64,000 nt of DNA from Vulcanimicrobiota bacterium (lineage in GTDB: Bacteria; Vulcanimicrobiota; Vulcanimicrobiia; Vulcanimicrobiales; Vulcanimicrobiaceae), in NCBI GenBank assembly GCA_003168375.1, contig PMSI01000002.1:124001-188000 (forward strand). The letters run 5' to 3'. The notes under the pieces were generated by a model. It was not told the DNA's origin. It saw nothing but the letters and a program-made list of their open reading frames with translations, and did not search any database. Of the stretch, positions 57,692 through 64,000 are shown piece after piece; position 1 is the first letter of the stretch, and each line of letters starts with the position of its first letter. The translations under genes and the position numbers were made by a program.

Positions 57692-57919
57692 TCAGCGGTC
57701 CCCGGCGAGGAGCTCGTCCACCCCGACGTCGAGCGCGAGCGCCAGCGCGCTCAGTTGCCGCAGGCTGACGTTCTGGCGCCCGGCTTCAACGTTGGCAACC
57801 GAGGGCCGGCTGATCCCCGAGCGCTCGGCGAGCCGGAGCTGCGTCAGACCGCGGTCGGCGCGCAGCTCGCGGATGCGCGCGCCGACCCGCTGCTGCAGGG
57901 CTTCGGCGAGCCCGTTCAC
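57692..57919 (-). CDS. XRE-family helix-turn-helix regulator
   Basis: A 75-residue protein consisting only of an XRE DNA-binding domain: IRELRADRGLTQLRLAERSG, then RPSVANVEAGRQNVSLRQLS with the recognition helix, and LALALDVGVDELLAG. GTG 57919 overlaps the upstream HNH stop as GTGA, so the two genes are coupled; restriction- or mobile-element-style control of the nuclease is possible (inference). Confidence 0.9.
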   Translation of the reverse strand: MNGLAEALQQRVGARIRELRADRGLTQLRLAERSGISRPSVANVEAGRQNVSLRQLSALALALDVGVDELLAGDR

Positions 57920-58449
57920 CGGCCGACCCGCTCTTCGATCCCGACGCTGTAGAGCGCGAGATACTTGTCCCATTCGTCGGGCGCCGTGTTGCGGCGGACG
58001 ACGATCCACGGGATGAACCGCGGCTCGCGCGGGACGCGGCGGAGCGGCATGCGCGCCTCGTCCGGCGTGCGGTCGCGCTTGCGCGCGTTGCACGCCGTGC
58101 AGCAGGCGACGAGGTTCTCCCACGCCGAGCGGCCGCCGCGGCTGCGCGGCACGACGTGGTCGACCGTCATCGTCGCGCCGCCGCGCGAAGCGCAGTAACC
58201 GCAGACGTAGTCGTCGCGGAGCAGGACGTTCTTCTTCGTCAGCGCGACCTTCTTGCGGCGGCGCGCGACGTAGTAGAGCAGCCGCACGATCGACGGCAGC
58301 GGAAACGCCGCCGTCACGGAGCGGATCTCGCCGGCGCCGGCGTGCACGATCTCGACCTTGCGCGCGAAGAGCAGCCGCACCGCGCGGGTAACGTCGACGA
58401 CGCCCAGCGGCTCGTACGTGAAGTTGAGGAGCAGACAGTCTGAGCTCAA
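57916..58449 (-). CDS. HNH endonuclease
   Basis: A 177-residue nuclease. The start is TTG 58449 because AAAGGAGG lies eight bases upstream; a farther upstream start would run through the adjacent tRNA gene. HNH residues are seen in VCGYCASRGGATMTVDHVVPRSRGGRSAWENLVACCTACNARK: two CxxC zinc pairs and the catalytic DHVVPRS/His and Asn. This form is common as a stand-alone HNH of the McrA-like type (HNHc). It sits at the end of the tRNA array and might be part of it. The family's DNA target is unknown. Confidence 0.85.
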   Translation of the reverse strand: MSSDCLLLNFTYEPLGVVDVTRAVRLLFARKVEIVHAGAGEIRSVTAAFPLPSIVRLLYYVARRRKKVALTKKNVLLRDDYVCGYCASRGGATMTVDHVVPRSRGGRSAWENLVACCTACNARKRDRTPDEARMPLRRVPREPRFIPWIVVRRNTAPDEWDKYLALYSVGIEERVGR

Positions 58450-58495
58450 GGGAATCGCCTCCTTTCGTGCGTCGTCGAGTGTTGGGTGAAGAAAT

Positions 58496-58569
58496 TGGAG
58501 CGGCAACTGGGAGTCGAACCCAGGTCATCTGGTTGGAGGCCAGAGGCATTCCCGTTATGCAATAACCGC
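58496..58569 (-). tRNA. tRNA-Gly(TCC), divergent
   Basis: Anticodon loop CCTCCAA between TCTGG and CCAGA, giving anticodon TCC but C at the position of U33. D stem GCAT/ATGC, T loop TTCGACT, discriminator T and an encoded CCA. The acceptor stem (GCGGTTA/TTGCCGC) has one T-T mismatch. Confidence 0.75.
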
Positions 58570-58570
58570 G

Positions 58571-58644
58571 TGGAGCGGGCCGCCGGAATCGAACCGGCGC
58601 TTTCAGCACGGCGCGCTGAAACACTACCACTATGTAAGACCCGC
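58571..58644 (-). tRNA. tRNA-Gly(GCC), divergent loop
   Basis: Acceptor stem GCGGGTC/GGCCCGC, T loop TTCGATT, T73 and CCA encoded. The anticodon loop is GCGCCGT closed by TCAGC/GCTGA, giving GCC but again C at position 33 and G/T at 37/38, unlike ordinary Gly loops. Confidence 0.7.
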
Positions 58645-58645
58645 G

Positions 58646-58721
58646 TGGTGCGCAAGCCCGGAGTCGAACCGGGACCGGCTAGTCTGTTACACTAGCGCCC
58701 TTCCCAGAGGGCCTCTCGCGC
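58646..58721 (-). tRNA. tRNA-Val(AAC), unusual anticodon
   Basis: Acceptor GCGCGAG/CTTGCGC, A73, CCA, D arm GCCC/GGGC and T loop TTCGACT are fine. The loop is GTAACAG within CTAGT/ACTAG; anticodon AAC has A34, which is rare for bacterial valine tRNAs (normally GAC or TAC). It is the only valine candidate in the array. Confidence 0.6.
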
Positions 58722-58722
58722 A

Positions 58723-58802
58723 TGGTGTTGTCGGCGGGAATCGAACCCGCGACCTCCGCCTTATCAGGGCGGCGCTCTCGTGCCGGGCTGAGCTACGACA
58801 AC
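58723..58802 (-). tRNA. tRNA-Ile(GAT)
   Basis: Acceptor GTTGTCG/CGACAAC, loop CTGATAA inside CCGCC/GGCGG, T loop TTCGATT, A73 and CCA. Canonical anticodon loop; D loop somewhat long. Confidence 0.9.
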
Positions 58803-58803
58803 A

Positions 58804-58878
58804 TGGGGCTCTCGACCGGATTCGAACCGGTGTGACGACGCAGAGAACGTCGCAGCCTGGCCGCTGGCTGACGAGAGC
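58804..58878 (-). tRNA. tRNA-Glu(CTC)-like
   Basis: Acceptor GCTCTCG/CGAGAGC and T loop TTCGAAT are sound; loop TTCTCTG (CGACG/CGTCG) gives CTC. Position 37 is T and the discriminator is C where glutamate tRNAs usually have G, so identity is uncertain. Confidence 0.6.
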
Positions 58879-58883
58879 GAAGG

Positions 58884-58955
58884 TACCCCGTGACGGTTCC
58901 GACCCGTCTTTGTCGGCCTGAAAAACCGATGTCTTAGCCACTAGACGAACGGGGC
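58884..58955 (-). tRNA. tRNA-Glu(TTC), degenerate T loop
   Basis: The 5' half (GCCCCGTTCGTCTAGTGG) is a typical Glu tRNA. Loop TTTTCAG gives TTC. The T loop is GTCGGAA instead of TTCGANN, and CCA is not encoded (CCT follows A73). Possibly non-functional or divergent. Confidence 0.6.
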
Positions 58956-58958
58956 ATA

Positions 58959-59031
58959 CGGTCCCGACGAGAATCGAACTCGTACTCGCTGATCGACAAT
59001 CAACTGTGCAGAGCCACTACACTACGGGACC
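58959..59031 (-). tRNA. tRNA-Asp(GTC)
   Basis: Acceptor GGTCCCG/CGGGACC with G73, T loop TTCGATT and anticodon loop TTGTCGA in GTTGA/TCAGC. G73 and GTC fit aspartate. CCA is not encoded. Confidence 0.8.
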
Positions 59032-59032
59032 A

Positions 59033-59124
59033 TGGCGGATGACGTAGGTTTCGATCCCCCGCGGGTTTGAGCCGCGTCCACGCGAGTTTTCAGGACTCGT
59101 TGCCTGCCACAGGCGGCGTCATCC
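59033..59124 (-). tRNA. tRNA-Ser(TGA), class II, C33
   Basis: About 92 nt with a long variable arm, acceptor GGATGAC/GTCATCC, G73 and CCA. Loop CCTGAAA between CGAGT and ACTCG gives TGA with C at position 33. T loop is ATCGAAA with a weak T stem. Confidence 0.75.
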
Positions 59125-59129
59125 ACGAT

Positions 59130-59160
59130 CGGAGCGGGACGTCGGGATCCAGCCGACGGC
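59130..59160 (-). pseudogene. tRNA 3' half left beside an HNH gene
   Basis: Acceptor-like GTCCCGC, a 5-bp stem GTCGG/CCGAC around a 7-nt loop and a discriminator T look like the T arm and 3' end of a tRNA. The rest is absent; the HNH stop codon follows about 5 bp away. No matching 5' half is seen beyond the HNH gene. Confidence 0.35.
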
Positions 59161-59165
59161 CGCGG

Positions 59166-59768
59166 TTACGAATAAGCCACTGAGTCGGCTTCGGCCGACA
59201 AACCGACGGACTTAAATTGCGCCATCCGCCCGCGCCCCATATTCAGCGCGCCGTACGTCGTCGTTAGGGAGTGGCAGTTTGGGCAGAGAAGTCGGAGGTT
59301 CTCCGGCGTCGTATTTAAGAAATTCCCGTCGATATGGTCAACGTGAACGGGTACTCGTCCCGTAACGGGATGGATCTCCGCCCAGCCGCACTGCCAACAG
59401 CGCTCGCCACGAAGCGAGATCACCCAGTTCCGGACGTGTCGGGAAATCGCCACGAAGGGGCCAACGCTTCTCTTGCGACCGGTTTCGCGTCCAGCCAGCC
59501 AGCGCGCAATATATTCCGCGCGACTCACGCGACTCCAACACGCGTTGCGAGCGTATCCTTTCACCCCTCGCGCCAATTGACCGCATCCGCATCGACAGGG
59601 CTTCGTTGAAGCAAGTTTTTTCCGGCTGGGACGATGCGCGTATCGGTTCTTGCCGATGTTATTCAATCTCGCTGCGCACGACATCGAACAGAACCGAAGT
59701 CGCCCGTCGCGGTCCGCAAAGTCCTTCGCGCACGTCGGGCACGTCTTGATTGCTTTCACACTTTTCAT
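59166..59768 (-). CDS. HNH homing-type endonuclease within the tRNA array
   Basis: A 200-residue protein from ATG 59768. N-terminal zinc-ribbon-like segments (TCPTCAKDF, FCSMSCAARLNN, CRCGCGQL) precede a C-terminal HNH domain: CWQCGWAEIHPVTGRVPVHV with HVDHIDGNFLNTTPENLRLL and CPNCHSLT, the style of phage and free-standing homing endonucleases. Codon use is noticeably less GC-rich than in housekeeping genes, suggesting transfer. It splits the array: eight tRNAs lie on one side and the remainder on the other. A tRNA 3' half directly abuts its stop, consistent with insertion into a tRNA gene. The 131 bp on its 5' side hold no gene. Confidence 0.85.
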   Translation of the reverse strand: MKSVKAIKTCPTCAKDFADRDGRLRFCSMSCAARLNNIGKNRYAHRPSRKKLASTKPCRCGCGQLARGVKGYARNACWSRVSRAEYIARWLAGRETGRKRSVGPFVAISRHVRNWVISLRGERCWQCGWAEIHPVTGRVPVHVDHIDGNFLNTTPENLRLLCPNCHSLTTTYGALNMGRGRMAQFKSVGLSAEADSVAYS

Positions 59769-59899
59769 CTTGTCAAGAACATAAGCCTACGCGATGACAG
59801 CGTCTTGGCACAGTGGAGTGTTCTTGCGCGTCGAATTAACGATAGTTGACCGATATAACAACGCACCCCATCATCCGCGAAAACATCGGGCATAATCTG

Positions 59900-59972
59900 T
59901 GCCGGCGCGGAGGGTCGAACTCCGACCTGATGACTTAAAAGGACACCGCTCTACCGCTTGAGCTACGCCGGC
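59900..59972 (-). tRNA. tRNA-Lys(TTT)
   Basis: Acceptor GCCGGCG/CGCCGGC, A73, D arm TAGCTCAAGCGGTAGAGC, T loop TTCGACC. Loop CTTTTAA gives TTT; the anticodon stem GTGTC/GTCAT has one mismatch. CCA is not encoded. Confidence 0.8.
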
Positions 59973-59976
59973 GAAC

Positions 59977-60048
59977 TCGGGATCGTGACGTCGACACGTC
60001 ATAGCGGGACCAAAACCCGCAGCCTTTCCCAGACTGGCTCATCGCTTG
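59977..60048 (-). pseudogene. degenerate tRNA-Gln(TTG)-like sequence
   Basis: A perfect anticodon stem GCGGG/CCCGC encloses TTTTGGT (TTG) and GCC/GGC forms a D stem. The T arm has a 6-nt loop (TGTCGA) and the predicted acceptor halves do not pair (CAAGCGA against CGATCCC). Probably a decayed tRNA. Confidence 0.45.
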
Positions 60049-60051
60049 TTG

Positions 60052-60124
60052 TCTTCCAGGCCGGGTTCGAACCGGCGGCGCTCGCGCTTCAGAGGCGCGC
60101 GGTCTGCCGTCTGAGCTACGGGAG
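60052..60124 (-). tRNA. tRNA with anticodon CTG on an Arg-like body
   Basis: Loop CTCTGAA in CGCGC/GCGCG gives CTG (Gln). The body closely matches the tRNA-Arg(CCG) at 60525, so it may be an arginine-type tRNA with a changed anticodon. The acceptor CTCCCGT/CTGGAAG has two mismatches and CCA is not encoded. Confidence 0.55.
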
Positions 60125-60125
60125 C

Positions 60126-60201
60126 TGGAGCCCGGGGCCGGATTCGAACCGGCTACTTCGACTTTACGGGAGTCGCGCTCGTCCTAACGAGCTCCCCGGG
60201 C
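60126..60201 (-). tRNA. tRNA-Thr(CGT), C33
   Basis: Perfect acceptor GCCCGGG/CCCGGGC, T loop TTCGAAT, T73 and CCA. Anticodon loop CCCGTAA in CGACT/AGTCG gives CGT with C at position 33. Confidence 0.75.
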
Positions 60202-60205
60202 ATCG

Positions 60206-60278
60206 AGACGACGCCGCGAATCGAACGCGATCCATGATGCTTTTGCAGAGCATCGCCTTCCCACTTGGCTACGTCGTC
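60206..60278 (-). tRNA. tRNA-Cys(GCA)
   Basis: Acceptor GACGACG/CGTCGTC, T73 as expected for Cys, loop CTGCAAA in ATGCT/AGCAT, T loop TTCGATT. CCA is not encoded. Confidence 0.88.
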
Positions 60279-60279
60279 A

Positions 60280-60356
60280 TGGCTGCGGGGGCTGGGATCG
60301 AACCAGCGCATTTCCGGATTCAGAGACCGGCGCCTTACCGTCTTGGCTACCCCGCA
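60280..60356 (-). tRNA. tRNA-Gln(CTG)
   Basis: Acceptor TGCGGGG/CCCCGCA, G73, CCA and TAGCCAAGACGGTAAGGC D arm match glutamine tRNAs. Loop CTCTGAA gives CTG; the pair closing the loop is T-T. T loop TTCGATC. Confidence 0.85.
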
Positions 60357-60362
60357 ATGTGT

Positions 60363-60442
60363 TGGTGTCGGCGGCGAGACTCGAACTCGCGCATGCCTGA
60401 TTACAAAAGTTAGATGCTCTGAAGCCGCTGAGCTACGCCGGC
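60363..60442 (-). tRNA. tRNA of uncertain identity (Gln TTG or Thr TGT)
   Basis: Acceptor GCCGGCG/CGCCGAC has one mismatch; T loop TTCGAGT, A73 and CCA are good. The anticodon arm is poorly paired (CTAAC against ATCAG) around TTTTGTA, so the anticodon could be TTG or, with a shifted loop, TGT. Confidence 0.5.
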
Positions 60443-60446
60443 TTGA

Positions 60447-60520
60447 TGGCTCCCGGTCAGAGAATCGAACTCCGCTCTCGCGTTCCAAAGGCGCGCGTCT
60501 TGCCGCTAGACGATCCGGGA
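60447..60520 (-). tRNA. tRNA-Gln(TTG)-like
   Basis: TCCCGGA/ACCGGGA acceptor with one mismatch, G73, CCA, D arm TCGTCTAGCGGCAAGACG and T loop TTCGATT. Loop CTTTGGA gives TTG with G37; one unpaired base in the anticodon stem. Confidence 0.65.
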
Positions 60521-60524
60521 TCAT

Positions 60525-60600
60525 TGGACTCCCCGGCCGGATTCGAACCGGCGTCCTCGCGCTTCGGACGCGCGCGATCTTCCGACTGAGCTACGGGGAG
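60525..60600 (-). tRNA. tRNA-Arg(CCG)
   Basis: Acceptor CTCCCCG/CGGGGAG, loop GTCCGAA in CGCGC/GCGCG, T loop TTCGAAT, T73 and CCA. All stems are intact. Confidence 0.85.
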
Positions 60601-60603
60601 ACA

Positions 60604-60676
60604 AGCTGCAGCCGGGACTCGAACCCGGTACCTTGCCGATACCAACGGCACGTTCAACCGCATGAACTTCAACAGC
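60604..60676 (-). tRNA. tRNA-Thr(GGT)
   Basis: Loop TTGGTAT in a perfect TGCCG/CGGCA stem; T loop TTCGAGT. Acceptor GCTGTTG/CTGCAGC has one mismatch, and CCA is not encoded (TGT follows T73). Confidence 0.75.
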
Positions 60677-60678
60677 AA

Positions 60679-60753
60679 TGGAGCGCGCGATCGGATTTGA
60701 ACCGATAGCCGTCTCGTTAGAAGCGAGCCGCACGTCCGTCGTGCTGCGCGCGC
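60679..60753 (-). tRNA. tRNA-Arg(TCT)
   Basis: Acceptor GCGCGCG/CGCGCGC, loop CTTCTAA, T loop TTCAAAT, T73 and CCA. The D arm is short (GCAC/GTGC) and only four anticodon-stem pairs form. Confidence 0.75.
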
Positions 60754-60762
60754 GGCGAATAG

Positions 60763-60834
60763 TTGCGGTGAGCGGAGTTGAACCGCTGCCGAACAGCTTA
60801 TGAGGCTGCTGCCCTACCGCTGGGCGACACCGCA
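60763..60834 (-). tRNA. tRNA-Met(CAT), first copy
   Basis: Acceptor TGCGGTG/CACCGCA with T1-A72 paired, loop CTCATAA in GCAGC/GCTGT, T loop TTCAACT, A73. CCA is not encoded. Lacks the three G-C pairs of an initiator, so elongator (or Ile-CAT) is more likely. Confidence 0.75.
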
Positions 60835-60839
60835 ATAGA

Positions 60840-60925
60840 TGGAGGGTGAGGTCGGATTCGAACCGACAGTGCGCGTGCGCGACGGGGTTACGGCCCGCCG
60901 TCCATTCCTACAGAACGTCTCACCC
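60840..60925 (-). tRNA. tRNA-Tyr(GTA), class II, C33
   Basis: Acceptor GGGTGAG/CTCACCC, long variable arm, T loop TTCGAAT, T73 and CCA. Loop CCGTAAC in GCGGG/CCCGT gives GTA but with C at position 33. Confidence 0.75.
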
Positions 60926-60926
60926 A

Positions 60927-61010
60927 TGGTGCGATCGGCGCGACTTGAACGCGCACTCTCTTCGAACAGCGTTCTCAACGCTGCGCGTCTACCGATTCCC
61001 CCACGATCGC
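60927..61010 (-). tRNA. tRNA-Leu(GAG)
   Basis: Class II. Acceptor GCGATCG/CGATCGC, loop TTGAGAA in CAGCG/CGCTG, variable arm, T loop TTCAAGT, A73 and CCA. Looks fully functional. Confidence 0.9.
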
Positions 61011-61011
61011 A

Positions 61012-61098
61012 TGGTCGGCGACGAGCGATTCGAACGCTCACGTCTGTTCGACGGCCGGGTCTGAGCCGGCTGGGTCTACCAAATTCCCCCAGTCACCG
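61012..61098 (-). tRNA. tRNA-Leu(CAG)
   Basis: Class II. Acceptor CGGTGAC/GTCGCCG, loop CTCAGAC in GCCGG/CCGGC, T loop TTCGAAT, A73 and CCA. Confidence 0.88.
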
Positions 61099-61103
61099 AT
61101 ATT

Positions 61104-61180
61104 TGGAGCCCGCGGCCAGATTCGAACTGGCTGAGATCTGGTTACTGCGCCAGACGCTCGTCCCAACGAGCCCCACGGGC
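61104..61180 (-). tRNA. Thr-type tRNA with 8-nt anticodon loop
   Basis: The body matches the tRNA-Thr(CGT) at 60126 (GCCCG start, GGGCTCGTTGGGACGAGC D arm, T loop TTCGAAT, T73, CCA). TCTGG/CCAGA closes an eight-base loop CGCAGTAA rather than seven. A four-base anticodon or +1 frameshift reading is possible. Confidence 0.7.
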
Positions 61181-61181
61181 A

Positions 61182-61259
61182 TGGTGCGCGACCGGAGATT
61201 CGAACTCCGCATTCCCTCGGGTAAGAACCGAGACTATTCCAGACGTCAGTTTGTCGCGC
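61182..61259 (-). tRNA. tRNA-Lys(CTT)
   Basis: Acceptor GCGCGAC/GTCGCGC, loop TTCTTAC in CTCGG/CCGAG, T loop TTCGAAT, A73 and CCA. Confidence 0.88.
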
Positions 61260-61262
61260 GAT

Positions 61263-61339
61263 TGGTATGGGCGGTGAGACTCGAACTCACGATCTCGTGC
61301 TTCCGACGCACGCAGGATGCCCAGCTTCCCTACGCCCAT
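61263..61339 (-). tRNA. tRNA-Pro(CGG)
   Basis: Acceptor ATGGGCG/CGCCCAT, loop GTCGGAA in CGTGC/GCACG, T loop TTCGAGT, A73 and CCA. Confidence 0.85.
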
Positions 61340-61351
61340 GTGATGAATATA

Positions 61352-61425
61352 TGGATTGCTAGAGAATCGAACTCTACACAGCGGCATTGCAAGTGCTGCT
61401 CGCCAGCCTTGGTACATGGCAACCC
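61352..61425 (-). tRNA. tRNA-Ala(TGC)
   Basis: Acceptor GGGTTGC/GCAATCC, A73, loop CTTGCAA, T loop TTCGATT. One A-C mismatch in the anticodon stem, an unusual D arm and no encoded CCA. Confidence 0.7.
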
Positions 61426-61429
61426 AAAA

Positions 61430-61504
61430 TGGAACCCCCGGGCGGATTCGAACCGCCGATGGACAGCTTCGTAGACTGTCGCTTTTCCGCTTAGCTACGG
61501 GGGC
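61430..61504 (-). tRNA. tRNA-Arg(ACG)
   Basis: Acceptor GCCCCCG/CGGGGGT, loop CTACGAA (the standard inosine-type ACG), T loop TTCGAAT, T73 and CCA. Confidence 0.88.
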
Positions 61505-61506
61505 GT

Positions 61507-61593
61507 TGGAGGAACGGGCGGGACTCGAACCCACGCGGGCTTTCACCCTCGTCGCACTAGCATTGCGATGCCTTACCGCTCGGCCACCGTTCC
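61507..61593 (-). tRNA. tRNA-Ser(GCT)
   Basis: Class II. Acceptor GGAACGG/CCGTTCC, loop ATGCTAG in TCGCA/TGCGA, long variable arm, T loop TTCGAGT, T73 (Ser usually G) and CCA. Confidence 0.85.
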
Positions 61594-61692
61594 TGGACAC
61601 GGCGAGCTGCACCGGTCGCGGACCCATCGCGACCTGGTGCTTGGCGCACGTCGGAGAGCCGACGGCGCCGACGGACCGCGCGGCTCGCCGTG
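61594..61692 (-). ncRNA. 99-nt tRNA-like structured element ending in CCA
   Basis: In the tRNA spacing pattern but not a normal tRNA. The ends pair over 10 bp (CACGGCGAGC/GCTCGCCGTG) and are followed by T-CCA. Inside are two long hairpins: GGCGC-CGTCGG-CTCT-CCGACG-T-GCGCC, and GCACC-A-GGTCGCG-ATGGGTC-CGCGACC-GGTGC. There is no proper D arm or 7-nt anticodon loop, and it does not fit selenocysteine tRNA. It may be a fused or degenerate tRNA or an unrelated small RNA. Confidence 0.4.
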
Positions 61693-61713
61693 AACGCGCG
61701 GTCCTGGGGGAGA

Positions 61714-61784
61714 TGGTTGCGGACCCCGGAACCGCCCCGGGTTTGCAGGCATATGAAACCCGCCTCGCACTCTGCGTGCCCGCA
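61714..61784 (-). tRNA. tRNA-Met(CAT), second copy
   Basis: Acceptor TGCGGGC/GTCCGCA, A73 and CCA; loop TTCATAT in CGGGT/GCCTG. The T loop (GGCGGTT) and the short D arm are degenerate. Directly abuts the next tRNA without a gap. Confidence 0.6.
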
Positions 61785-61859
61785 TGGCTCTCGGAGAAGG
61801 ACTCGAACCCTCAATGAGCCGGGTAACAACCGGCTGCCTTACCTTTTGGCTACCCGAGA
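61785..61859 (-). tRNA. tRNA-Asn(GTT)
   Basis: Acceptor TCTCGGG/TCCGAGA, G73 and CCA; loop TTGTTAC in GCCGG/CCGGC; T loop TTCGAGT. All features fit asparagine. Confidence 0.88.
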
Positions 61860-61862
61860 TCG

Positions 61863-61938
61863 TGGCGGGAACGGATGGAGTCGAACCATCTTCTTCTGGG
61901 CTTCAACCAGACGCTAGAACCGTTGCAGCTGCGTTCCC
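61863..61938 (-). tRNA. tRNA-Phe(GAA)
   Basis: Acceptor GGGAACG/CGTTCCC, loop TTGAAGC in TCTGG/CCAGA, T loop TTCGACT, CCA. The discriminator is G where Phe usually has A. The 197 bp beyond it contain no gene. Confidence 0.82.
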
Positions 61939-62135
61939 AAATGCGATCTCGTGCGCTTCCTCTCACTCGGAAGACGGCGCGATGCCCCGATCGCGGGGGC
62001 GTGCGAGACCGGCCCAACGGCACGGCGCATCGAAGCGCGCCGCGCGAGAGTCTCGCGCAAGGTTATTCTTGACGAACGATTCAGTTTTCAAAGGACGCGT
62101 TGAATCAGACGTGCACGACCGTGCACGCGCAGAAT

Positions 62136-62212
62136 TGGTGTGACCGGTGGGGCTCGAACCCACTTCGACTCGCGTCACAAGCGAGTGCCTCGACCTCTTC
62201 GGCCTCGGCCAC
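62136..62212 (-). tRNA. tRNA-His(GTG)
   Basis: Loop TTGTGAC in CTCGC/GCGAG; acceptor GTGGCCG/CGGTCAC preceded by an encoded G (-1). T loop TTCGAGC and CCA. The discriminator is A rather than the C expected for histidine, and the D loop is long. Confidence 0.7.
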
Positions 62213-62216
62213 CATG

Positions 62217-62284
62217 CAGGCCCGGAACGAATCGAACGCTCATCTCACGGGTTGGAATCGTGATCGTCGCCTTGACGCGAGCCT
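62217..62284 (-). tRNA. tRNA-Trp(CCA)
   Basis: Acceptor AGGCTCG/CGGGCCT, G73 as for Trp, loop TTCCAAC in CACGA/CCGTG (one mismatch), T loop TTCGATT. The D arm is very small (CGTC/GACG with a 5-nt loop) and CCA is not encoded. First tRNA in transcription order. Confidence 0.65.
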
Positions 62285-62325
62285 AAGAAAAGACCGAGGG
62301 GACCGGCTGCGCGCCGATCCCCTCG
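62285..62325 (-). terminator. rho-independent terminator just before the tRNA array
   Basis: On the minus strand an 8-bp stem (CGAGGGGA/TCCCCTCG) plus an inner 4-bp stem (CGGC/GCCG) is followed at once by GTCTTTTCTT, whose end touches the first tRNA. Either it ends the small upstream transcript or it is an attenuator for the array. Confidence 0.75.
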
Positions 62326-62354
62326 TGATGTTCACAGGAGTACCAGAGCGTCAG

Positions 62355-62486
62355 CTATCGATGCAGCGGGTTCCCCCGCTTCGCGCCGATCTGTCCCGAC
62401 ATACCGACGACGTCGAGGCAATACGAATCCGCGGACCACAGACTGTGGCCTTTGGCTCGTGGGAGGATCAACGGGAATCGTTGCAT
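62355..62486 (-). CDS. possible 43-codon leaderless ORF upstream of the array
   Basis: ATG 62486 lies about 3 bases from the transcription start predicted from the promoter at 62496-62525. The frame gives MQRFPLILPRAKGHS ... SGQIGAKRGNPLHR and ends with TAG at 62355. RNA hairpins are also evident in the same stretch (CCACAG/CTGTGG, and AGCGGG-GGAA-CCCGCT with a GNRA-like loop), so this could be a small RNA rather than a peptide gene. Confidence 0.25.
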   Translation of the reverse strand: MQRFPLILPRAKGHSLWSADSYCLDVVGMSGQIGAKRGNPLHR

Positions 62487-62495
62487 GACGTGCCG

Positions 62496-62525
62496 ATCCT
62501 AAAGCCAGTCCCGTGTACTTGTCAA
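62496..62525 (-). promoter_or_regulatory. sigma70-like promoter facing the tRNA array
   Basis: Minus-strand TTGACA (62525-62520), 18-bp spacer, TAGGAT (62501-62496). A start near 62489 would yield a transcript of about 200 nt up to the terminator, or the whole array if read-through occurs. The -35 is a perfect consensus. Confidence 0.65.
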
Positions 62526-62851
62526 GCGGTCGCGCAATGTTTTTCACCTTGACACAATGTTTCGGTGACGAAATCCCGTCCCGGAACGTATTGACAAAGG
62601 TCGTATCACTCACGTAAGCTCCGAGGCGAGTTCATATGCTTCAACCATCCGTCGTCCGACCCGATCAGAAATCCGGCTGCGCAAAGCGACAGCTGCTGAC
62701 GTCGTCGTACGCCGCGATCGGGAGCTTCCCGGTCTAACCTCGAGCGCGAACCCACGGACGCTGTCGGAAGCGGGGTGAGCGATGCGCTCGCCCCGCTTCT
62801 GCTATCATCCCGAAAGGAGGTCACCGCCAAGATCGATCGCGCTGCCGAAGC
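62526..62851. other. non-coding stretch with hairpin
   Basis: No convincing gene. A plus-strand TTGACA-18 bp-TAAGCT pattern occurs near 62590-62620. A near-perfect 14-bp hairpin AAGCGGGGTGAGCG/CGCTCGCCCCGCTT lies at 62768-62798 without a T-run, and an AAAGGAGGT lies at about 62813 with no start codon after it. Confidence 0.5.
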
Positions 62852-62880
62852 TTCACTGGCCCGCGCGCTCGTGGTACAAT
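62852..62880 (+). promoter_or_regulatory. promoter of the LAGLIDADG gene, leaderless
   Basis: TTCACT (62852-62857), 17-bp spacer, TACAAT (62875-62880). The predicted start falls at or next to the ATG at 62887, so the mRNA would have essentially no 5' leader; no Shine-Dalgarno is present before that ATG. Confidence 0.6.
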
Positions 62881-62886
62881 TGCGGC

Positions 62887-63720
62887 ATGGGTGTGAAACA
62901 CGAGCAGCCGTTTGCCATAGATCCGCATTGCGAAGATCATGCCTACTTTCTCGGCTTACTCGCGACGGACGGTACGATTTCGGAGGCGACCAGAAATAGA
63001 GGTCGCGTATCGTTCGAGCTGAGCGCCACGGACGGTTCGATCCTCGCGGAGCTTGCATCTCGTATCCCGTACCGCTCGCACCTGAGCCGACGGTTTCGGA
63101 CGACGAACTTCCGCGCTAATTACGAGTCGGTCGTCCTGAGCTTCCACGACTTGGGGCTTCGGCGCGGACTTGTGAGCCTTGGGTTTCGAGCGGGCAAAAA
63201 GTCCTTGACGATTGCTCCACCGACAAAGCCGTATCACGAGACCGGTTTCTGGCGGGGCGTCATTGATGGCGATGGGTCACTCGGCATAATGGGCGATGGC
63301 CGGCCCTTCCTGTCGCTCGTTACGGCCAGCGAACCCTTGCGCAACCGGTATGTGGAATTCGTCTCTCGGATCATCGGTCGTCGGCCGAACCCGAACCGCA
63401 ACCGGCGCGACAACGTGTATAACATCGTGCTATTCGACGAGTCCGCCCAGTTATTTGCGTCCACGCTCTATCTATTCGGAGGAATCGCCATTGAGCGTAA
63501 GGCGCGTGCTGCTCGGTCGATTGCGGACTGGCGCCGATCCGCCTCGCGACCGCGGATCACATTCGAGCGACGCCGGTGGCTCCCAAACGAAGATCGAATC
63601 CTACTCACAAGTCCGTCGCTGCGGGCCGCTGCAGAAATTCTGAATCGAACTCAAAAGAGCGTTAACATCCGTCGCTGCCGCCTCCGGAACGAAGCCGAGG
63701 GCGCTAGCATCCAACAATAG
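62887..63720 (+). CDS. LAGLIDADG-family homing endonuclease
   Basis: A 277-residue protein from ATG 62887. Two LAGLIDADG helices are seen: HAYFLGLLATDGTISE (about residue 20) and ETGFWRGVIDGDGSLGIMGD (about 118), each with the catalytic acidic residue. The C-terminal 60 residues include SLRAAAEILNRTQKSVNIRR, which reads like a DNA-binding helix-turn-helix. Codon use is less GC-biased than in housekeeping genes and matches the HNH gene in the array. It is free-standing (no intein or intron borders seen), next to the tRNA array, and probably cuts there or nearby (inference). Confidence 0.87.
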   Translation: MGVKHEQPFAIDPHCEDHAYFLGLLATDGTISEATRNRGRVSFELSATDGSILAELASRIPYRSHLSRRFRTTNFRANYESVVLSFHDLGLRRGLVSLGFRAGKKSLTIAPPTKPYHETGFWRGVIDGDGSLGIMGDGRPFLSLVTASEPLRNRYVEFVSRIIGRRPNPNRNRRDNVYNIVLFDESAQLFASTLYLFGGIAIERKARAARSIADWRRSASRPRITFERRRWLPNEDRILLTSPSLRAAAEILNRTQKSVNIRRCRLRNEAEGASIQQ

Positions 63721-64000
63721 GGAACATCAAGGGCTGACGCGGGGTCGCGGGCCGTACGGGGCGGGTTCTCTGGGAGCCTATGGTTCGAATCCAAAGGTAT
63801 CGCGCGCGCAAGCTCGCGCTGCCGGCAGGGACGCGAGGTGTCGTCCCGCTCCCGCTTCACTTCTCGCCCGCGATCCTTCGTCACCCTTCCATAACCGGTC
63901 TGTCATCCTGAACTTGTCGAGAACCGGCCGTGGGCCGGACGTTCGAGGTTATCGTCTCCACACGGCTGTTCGTAAGAACTCGGGGACGGGTCTACGGGTG
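63721..64000. other. intergenic end of window
   Basis: No gene is seen. A plus-strand piece GGTTCGAATCC near 63783-63793 looks like an isolated tRNA T arm without the rest of a tRNA. TCATCCTGAACTTGTCGAG near 63904 resembles a dispersed repeat type I have seen in environmental genomes; this is only an impression. Confidence 0.4.

What the first reader, a model, noticed from the sequence alone, without database searches (positions are those of the whole stretch)
58496..62284. Dense tRNA array of about 34 genes covering all 20 amino acids
About 34 minus-strand tRNA genes are packed with 0-10 bp gaps, apart from the HNH insertion and two spacers. My manual anticodons include Gly, Val, Ile, Glu, Asp, Ser, Lys, Gln, Thr, Cys, Arg, Met, Tyr, Leu, Pro, Ala, Asn, Phe, His and Trp. 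Compact tRNA arrays exist on plasmids, ICEs and phages of other lineages, but a full 20-amino-acid set flanked by two homing-type nucleases in what looks like this phylum is, to my knowledge, not well described.
Basis: partly seen in the sequence, partly recalled or inferred. Interest (0 to 1): 0.85.

Follow-up and report, generated by a model that had tools for sequence, protein, structure and literature searches.

The report
tRNA array joined to RNA-repair genes
This soil bacterium carries a second, spare set of about 30 tRNA genes for all 20 amino acids, packed beside RNA-repair genes (Ro60, a Y RNA and, in sister species, the RtcB RNA ligase), which suggests a backup kit for restarting protein synthesis when the normal tRNAs are damaged.

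Summary
The array is real. ARAGORN finds 28 minus-strand tRNAs at 58496-62284; Rfam adds Phe, and reading adds two probable and two degraded ones, so all 20 amino acids are covered. The genome (Candidatus Eremiobacterota/WPS-2) has 43 other tRNAs, so the array is a redundant second set. The main point lies just past the window edge: a Y RNA and a Ro60 (TROVE) gene. In most sister species the RNA ligase RtcB sits between array and Y RNA; here its reading frame is replaced by a LAGLIDADG gene. The module (HNH, array, RtcB, Y RNA, Ro60) is syntenic in the genus and absent as a block from a complete sister genome. tRNA stems show strong compensatory change, anticodons are kept, but anticodon-loop flanks diverge. 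A promoter, a conserved hairpin and an rRNA-type boxA lead the array. Among 80 Ro60 loci from GTDB, 31 carry tRNA arrays, 21 of those with the same HNH family (1 of 41 without arrays). Best reading: a tRNA-replacement and RNA-repair island; expression and function are untested. TROVE in archaeal tRNA clusters was already reported, so this is a new variant of a known kind.

The parts
58496..62284 (-). tRNA array: 28 ARAGORN tRNAs plus Phe (Rfam); order in + coordinates Gly Gly Val Ile Glu Glu Asp [Ser] [HNH gene] Lys [Gln-like] Gln Thr Cys Gln Gln Gln Arg Thr Arg Met Tyr Leu Leu [Thr-like][Lys] Pro Ala Arg Ser Asn Phe His Trp
   Evidence: syntenic arrays in sister genomes
59036..59128 (-). tRNA-Ser(UGA), missed by both programs; Ser(tga) lies between Asp and Thr in G001
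   Evidence: fold with 8-bp acceptor and anticodon stem; G001 array
61866..61938 (-). tRNA-Phe(GAA)
   Evidence: Rfam RF00005, 49 bits
61179..61256 (-). probable tRNA-Lys(CUU); weak
   Evidence: sequence reading; anticodon and T arms only in the centroid fold
61103..61178 (-). Thr-like tRNA with 8-nt anticodon loop; position of Thr(cgt) in G004
59976..60050 (-). degraded Gln-like tRNA
   Evidence: no acceptor stem
57916..58506 (-). HNH protein next to the array, same family as HNH genes in other tRNA arrays
   Evidence: Pfam HNH/HNH_5; syntenic in relatives; 21/31 array-bearing Ro60 loci
57692..57913 (-). XRE-type HTH regulator directly downstream of the HNH gene
   Evidence: Pfam HTH_3; orthologs in G002 and G005
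59166..59768 (-). HNH homing-endonuclease-like gene inserted inside the array
   Evidence: PF13392; PADLOC homing endonuclease hit; arrays of relatives have protein-gene-sized gaps at other places
62887..63720 (+). LAGLIDADG endonuclease-like gene in the exact place of rtcB
   Evidence: PF14528; replaces the G004 rtcB ORF, flanks 96-98% identical
62496..62525 (-). predicted array promoter TTGACA-18-TAGGAT, -35 conserved in 5 genomes
62295..62325 (-). strong leader hairpin with U-rich tail (attenuator or terminator-like) immediately before tRNA-Trp; hairpin conserved in 6 of 6 genomes
62083..62093 (-). boxA-like element CTTTGAAAACT after tRNA-Trp and tRNA-His, preceded by an inverted repeat (62110-62127); nearly the same core as in the host rRNA leader
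63725..64000 (+). Start of the segment that leads into the Y RNA and Ro60 gene; those lie beyond the window end at G000:C7:188073-188137 (YrlA match; 73-137 bp past the end) and G000:C7:188213-189820 (Ro60)
   Evidence: 97% identical to the rtcB-YRNA-Ro60 segment of G004; Rfam RF02553 36.2 bits, below gathering; PF05731 6e-40 and PF25045 4e-63

Best explanation
The array is the RNA-substrate half of a chromosomal tRNA-replacement and RNA-repair island. When the housekeeping tRNAs are cut or translation is poisoned, transcription from the leader promoter reads through the leader hairpin and, helped by rRNA-type boxA antitermination, makes one long noncoding transcript that is processed into a full spare tRNA set. 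The spare tRNAs keep their anticodons but have altered anticodon-loop flanks, which could make them poor substrates for anticodon nucleases. The partner genes deal with the damage: RtcB (in most sister species) reseals cut tRNAs, and Ro60 with its tRNA-mimicking Y RNA sorts or decays damaged RNA. Shown here: the array, its redundancy, its linkage to Ro60, Y RNA, RtcB and HNH, selection on tRNA folds, the conserved leader elements and the loop divergence. Inferred: inducibility, nuclease evasion, the boxA role, and the roles of the HNH and XRE proteins. In this particular genome RtcB is lost, so the replacement part would act without ligation.
For: The second tRNA set is redundant to 43 dispersed tRNAs and is not a recent copy of them (median 69% identity to the best host tRNA). 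Arrays of similar order lie at the same site in six further genomes of the genus; G009 has a rearranged one directly upstream of Y RNA and Ro60. RtcB lies between array (or its remnant) and Ro60 in G001, G004, G005, or beside one of them at contig breaks (G003, G007, G008). Within the genus, Ro60 is found in genomes with an array or remnant and in neither G006 nor G010, which lack it; in G008 it is cut off at the contig end. Stem pairs that changed were kept paired in 71% of cases, 316 by double change, against 28-34% in shifted registers. Anticodons diverge 0.129 and T loops 0.123, but loop positions 32/33/37/38 diverge 0.293; non-canonical loops in 55 of 177 array tRNAs versus 1 of 44 host tRNAs. 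Promoter, hairpin and boxA-like leader are conserved. Of 80 Ro60 loci, 31 have at least 5 tRNAs in 4 kb, over six named phyla; HNH in 21 of 31 versus 1 of 41; RtcB or an ATP RNA ligase in 11 of 31 versus 4 of 41. Published parallels: the Anabaena trn operon of 26 tRNAs is induced by translational stress, and its repressor TrcR also controls rtcB and an HNH gene (PMC10272220); Salmonella rsr-yrlBA-rtcBA is induced by damaged tRNA (PMC7790460); phage tRNAs carry anticodon-loop mutations predicted to evade nucleases (PMC10264068).
Against: No expression, processing, charging or phenotype data exist. This genome and G002 lack RtcB, and RtcA and RtcR are absent from the whole genus. 41 of 80 Ro60 loci have no array, and the 80 are the best-scoring loci, not a random or independent sample. 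Nostocales and Mycobacterium plasmid arrays have the HNH gene, but no Ro60 is annotated in the stretches read. Altered loops, especially loss of U33, could also mean relaxed constraint and poor decoding. Two or three genes in the window array look degraded. The leader hairpin is only a consensus match as a terminator, and its U tail is weak in several genomes. The Y RNA match is below Rfam's gathering score.
Confidence: 0.55

Rival explanations
1. It is a captured phage or plasmid tRNA array kept or eroding as a selfish or neutral passenger, spread by homing endonucleases; the neighbouring Ro60 and RtcB are phage-type RNA-repair cargo that came with it.
For: Phages carry arrays and Ro60 (10 of 80 viral Ro60 loci with arrays; 361 phage records with Ro60). 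Homing-type HNH and LAGLIDADG genes sit in the locus. Individual tRNAs have mosaic relationships between species. G006 has an empty site.
Against: Fixed location across the genus with conserved gene order, strong compensatory evolution of stems, conserved promoter/hairpin/boxA, and recurrent array-Ro60 association (at least 11 label changes on the Ro60 tree) argue for maintained function. An ancient phage origin is still possible and compatible with the best explanation.
Confidence: 0.2
2. Gene dosage or codon compensation: the extra tRNAs simply raise tRNA supply for fast growth or for particular codons.
For: All 20 amino acids are supplied and anticodons are conserved.
Against: Apart from Val(AAC), the array anticodons duplicate host anticodons; many loops are non-canonical, which is unexpected for optimal decoding; one 16S gene was found, not a fast-growth profile; codon compensation does not explain Ro60, Y RNA and RtcB. 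Codon usage itself was not computed.
Confidence: 0.1
3. Decoy or sponge: the array RNAs are bait that absorbs tRNA-cleaving toxins or supplies tRNA-like RNAs for Ro60 to bind, rather than being translated.
For: Non-canonical anticodon loops, degraded members, and the linkage to Ro60, whose Y RNA is itself a tRNA mimic. PMC7790460 suggests YrlA as a possible competitive nuclease inhibitor.
Against: Conservation of anticodons and of at least one gene per amino acid points to decoding; a bait for anticodon nucleases would be expected to keep the normal loop.
Confidence: 0.12

Closest known systems
tRNA array units of Mycobacterium chromosomes, plasmids and phages (PMC5966550, PMC12803027)
   Same: At least 20 tRNAs at more than 2 per kb, redundant 20-amino-acid set, embedded HNH gene and XRE regulator; the HNH family of this window is found inside mycobacterial plasmid arrays.
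   Different: Here the array is chromosomal at a fixed site and linked to Ro60, a Y RNA and (in sisters) RtcB; those papers mention no TROVE gene.
trn operon of Anabaena sp. PCC 7120 and related Nostocales plasmid arrays (PMC10272220)
   Same: Long redundant tRNA operon; rtcB and an HNH gene belong to the same TrcR regulon; HNH of the window's family directly precedes arrays in five Nostocales plasmids.
   Different: Plasmid-borne, no Ro60 reported; whether the Anabaena HNH gene is of this family was not tested.
rsr-yrlBA-rtcBA RNA repair operon of Salmonella (PMC7790460)
   Same: Ro60 (Rsr), Y RNA and RtcB in one locus (RtcB in sister species).
   Different: No RtcA or RtcR in the genus, and a complete tRNA array is part of the locus.
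Archaeal (mainly haloarchaeal) tRNA gene clusters with a TROVE gene in 20 of 29 (PMC6333295)
   Same: tRNA cluster accompanied by TROVE.
   Different: Archaea; reported as a gene-content remark; the passages read give no Y RNA, RtcB, leader or selection evidence.
Jumbo and mycobacteriophage tRNA arrays with Ro-like proteins (PMC7824862, PMC10264068)
   Same: Arrays, Ro/TROVE proteins and RNA ligases; anticodon-loop mutations relative to host tRNAs.
   Different: Here in a cellular chromosome with conserved synteny.

Membership tests
[quoted passage not shown] Morgado and Vicente) | 20 or more tRNAs at 2 or more per kb (PMC5966550) | tested here: met
   28 ARAGORN tRNAs in 3.79 kb, 7.4 per kb
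[quoted passage not shown] Morgado and Vicente) | isotypes redundant with the rest of the genome (usual, not strictly required) | tested here: met
   43 other tRNAs covering the code
rsr-Y RNA-rtcBA RNA repair operon | Ro60/Rsr protein in the locus | tested here: met
   TROVE and vWA_Ro60 over cut-off; NCBIfam Rsr equivalog 553 bits but below its 900-bit cut-off
rsr-Y RNA-rtcBA RNA repair operon | Y RNA next to rsr | tested here: inconclusive
   YrlA matches of 36-48 bits in four genomes, below the 69-bit gathering score; fold has a closing Ro-type stem and permuted tRNA-like arms
rsr-Y RNA-rtcBA RNA repair operon | RtcB ligase in the locus | tested here: not met
   absent from the window's genome, replaced by LAGLIDADG; met in G001, G003, G004, G005, G007, G008
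rsr-Y RNA-rtcBA RNA repair operon | RtcA cyclase and RtcR regulator | tested here: not met
   PF01137 and PF06956: 0 of 11 genus genomes
Mobile element (ICE, plasmid, prophage) carrying a tRNA array | integrase, att sites or structural/conjugation genes around the array | tested here: inconclusive
   none among the flanking genes scanned; array lies between the same chromosomal genes in sister species. The whole window was not screened for integrases or att repeats.
Homing endonucleases (internal HNH, LAGLIDADG) | domain match and variable presence at the site between close relatives | tested here: met
   PF13392, PF14528; LAGLIDADG absent at that site in G004
Homing endonucleases (internal HNH, LAGLIDADG) | site-specific DNA cleavage that drives homing | not testable with these tools
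   needs biochemistry
Stress-inducible tRNA operon (Anabaena trn type) | silent in normal growth, induced by translational stress | not testable with these tools
   only leader hairpin and promoter predicted

The most novel reading that the evidence does not exclude
Bacteria of several phyla keep a chromosomal translation-reboot island: a full spare tRNA set with nuclease-resistant anticodon loops, transcribed by rRNA-style antitermination, physically coupled to Ro60, a Y RNA and an RNA ligase, used to recover from tRNA-cleaving toxins or defence nucleases. The poorly known role of bacterial Ro60 would then be handling of tRNA damage.
Probability: 0.4. Interest if true: 0.85.

Novelty: new variant of a known kind. 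Interest (0 to 1): 0.7.

Why it matters
The function of cellular tRNA arrays and of bacterial Ro60 and Y RNAs are both open questions. A recurrent physical link between them, with an RNA ligase in some and an HNH gene in most of the array-bearing loci, gives each a testable partner, and Sorangium cellulosum strains with complete genomes carry the locus. The altered anticodon loops of a cellular array extend an idea so far argued for phage tRNAs.

Tried and rejected
The idea that both flanking nucleases are homing genes was dropped for the 57916 HNH: it is syntenic in relatives, and tree and linkage suggest repeated recruitment of a cellular HNH. The HNH family alone is not a marker of arrays: four plasmid hits have none nearby. 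Ro60 on a Bosea plasmid has one distant tRNA and no array, and a Sinorhizobium phage Ro60 has no tRNA annotated nearby. Ro60 genes outside the genus but in the phylum had no dense arrays, at most three tRNAs. Rfam hits to Plastid-ycf2 and similar on the opposite strand are reverse-complement noise. boxA-like motifs in other phyla were found near tRNAs in only two array loci, so that part is claimed for the genus only. Burroughs and Aravind 2016 is not in the library, so I could not check whether it mentions tRNA arrays.
Full report
Observation. ARAGORN reports 28 tRNA genes, all minus strand, from 58496 to 62284. Rfam's tRNA model reports 25 in the same stretch and adds Phe 61866-61938. Reading and folding give four more weak or degraded candidates: Ser(UGA), Lys(CUU), a Thr-like gene with an 8-nt loop and a broken Gln-like gene. 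The Lys candidate's minimum-energy fold is not a cloverleaf. All 20 amino acids are present. The density, 7.4 per kb, passes the published array definition of 20 tRNAs at 2 per kb (PMC5966550). The assembly (4.43 Mb, 7 contigs, 97% complete) holds 43 further tRNAs at dispersed sites that cover the code, so the array is a spare set. Sister contigs name the lineage as Candidatus Eremiobacterota / WPS-2.

Neighbourhood. Downstream of the last tRNA lies an HNH gene (57916-58506) and an XRE-type regulator (57692-57913). On the other side, 213 bp past the window end, begins a Ro60 protein with TROVE and Ro60-vWA domains. Just before it a YrlA-like Y RNA scores 36 bits, below the gathering score of 69, with E 2e-5; similar matches of 38-48 bits occur at the same place in G005, G007 and G009. 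The predicted fold has a closing stem and T, acceptor, D and anticodon-like arms in permuted order, though its energy is not below that of shuffled sequences.

Sister genomes. Six same-genus genomes carry arrays of similar order at the same site. RtcB, the RNA ligase, lies between array and Ro60 in G001, G004 and G005 (in G005 the array is reduced to one tRNA), and beside one of them on broken contigs of G003, G007 and G008. G000 (this window) and G002 have none. Compared with G004, window 62201-62828 and 63725-64300 are 96-98% identical, but the rtcB reading frame between them is replaced by a LAGLIDADG gene. G009 has a rearranged form: 17 tRNAs, Y RNA, Ro60, then two tRNAs on one strand, with RtcB left at the usual site. 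In complete genome G006 the flanking genes SDR and LivF are adjacent and the module is missing; G006 and G010 also lack Ro60 and RtcB.

Selection. Reciprocal-best tRNAs between the window array and seven other arrays show 598 changed stem pairs; 71% still pair, 316 of them by change on both sides, against 28-34% kept in shifted registers. Over all array pairs, anticodons diverge 0.129, T loops 0.123, stems 0.219, and loop positions 32/33/37/38 diverge 0.293. Loops that break the Y32-U33-R37 rule occur in 55 of 177 array tRNAs and 1 of 44 host tRNAs. This fits selection to keep decoding while the loop flanks change, as argued for phage tRNAs that evade anticodon nucleases (PMC10264068). Relaxed constraint on the flanks is not excluded. 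Array tRNAs are only about 69% identical to the best host tRNA, and the best match of individual tRNAs switches among sister species, so the arrays are mosaics.

Leader. On the minus strand: a promoter-like TTGACA-18-TAGGAT (62525-62496; 3 promoter-like sites found in the region against 0.3 expected), a leader of about 170 nt, and a 13-bp hairpin with a U-rich tail that ends about 10 bp before tRNA-Trp; the hairpin is present in all six genomes compared. After Trp and His comes CTTTGAAAACT, exact in seven of eight genomes and with one mismatch in the eighth. The same genome's rRNA operon has CCTTGAAAACTGAA 316 bp before 16S and a near-identical copy downstream of 16S. I read this as a boxA, the rRNA antitermination signal, which would let a long untranslated transcript be completed; this is inference.

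Wider linkage. The Ro60 alignment was used once against GTDB contigs. Of the best 80 loci, 31 have at least five tRNAs within 4 kb: 15 Myxococcota, 7 Verrucomicrobiota, 4 Eremiobacterota, 2 Actinomycetota, and single Armatimonadota, Dormibacterota and one unassigned delta-proteobacterium. The HNH family of the window occurs in 21 of these 31 and in 1 of 41 Ro60 loci with at most one tRNA. RtcB (8) or a DRB0094-type ATP RNA ligase (3) occurs in 11 of 31, against 4 of 41. On the Ro60 tree the array label needs at least 11 changes, so the link recurs or is repeatedly lost. Array HNH genes of Eremiobacterota group with the ordinary HNH genes of their own lineage and the label needs at least three changes in all, which suggests repeated recruitment; the tree has long branches. 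The same HNH family borders or lies inside arrays on five Nostocales and three mycobacterial plasmids, and not on four other plasmids. In viral contigs 10 of 80 Ro60 loci have arrays, none with this HNH or RtcB. The 80 loci are the best scoring, not a random or independent sample.

Known work. TROVE genes in 20 of 29 archaeal tRNA clusters were noted in 2019 (PMC6333295). Ro60, Y RNA and RtcB as an operon induced by damaged tRNA are known in Salmonella (PMC7790460). The Anabaena trn operon is silent until translational stress, and its repressor TrcR also controls rtcB and an HNH gene (PMC10272220). HNH and XRE genes are typical of one group of mycobacterial arrays (PMC5966550). Text searches found no paper that joins bacterial chromosomal arrays to Ro60 and Y RNA; most subscription papers are not held, and Burroughs and Aravind 2016 could not be read.

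Verdict. The mobile-element framing is only partly right. The best-supported reading is a tRNA-replacement and RNA-repair island; the window's copy has lost its ligase to a LAGLIDADG gene. Expression, charging and phenotype remain untested.

Noticed in passing
62829-63724: The rtcB reading frame of sister G004 is replaced from about start codon to stop codon by a LAGLIDADG cassette, with both flanks 96-98% identical.
   Followed up: yes
L167:8793-9941, L163:4956-5957, L178:12147-13148: Myxococcota Ro60-tRNA arrays carry a DRB0094-type ATP RNA ligase instead of RtcB.
   Followed up: partly
L072:9901-10356 and L228:204-647: A DIP1984-family protein (DUF6847) lies inside the G002 array, and a similar-looking protein lies in a Verrucomicrobia array locus; function unknown.
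   Followed up: no
L076:3441-3527: A tRNA read by ARAGORN as Val(gac) in G008 is 94% identical to window Leu(cag); either an identity switch or a mis-placed anticodon.
   Followed up: no
58646-58721: tRNA-Val with anticodon AAC, unusual for bacteria and the only anticodon not also found in the host set; the G004 copy is read with an 8-nt loop.
   Followed up: no
62216-62284: Array tRNA-Trp is short (69 nt) with the anticodon at position 30, as in G001, G002, G004 and G008, suggesting a reduced D arm.
   Followed up: no
63934-63961: GGCCGGACGTTCGAGGTTATC, a motif that opens the Y RNA beyond the window end, also occurs here upstream, suggesting a second Y RNA.
   Followed up: partly
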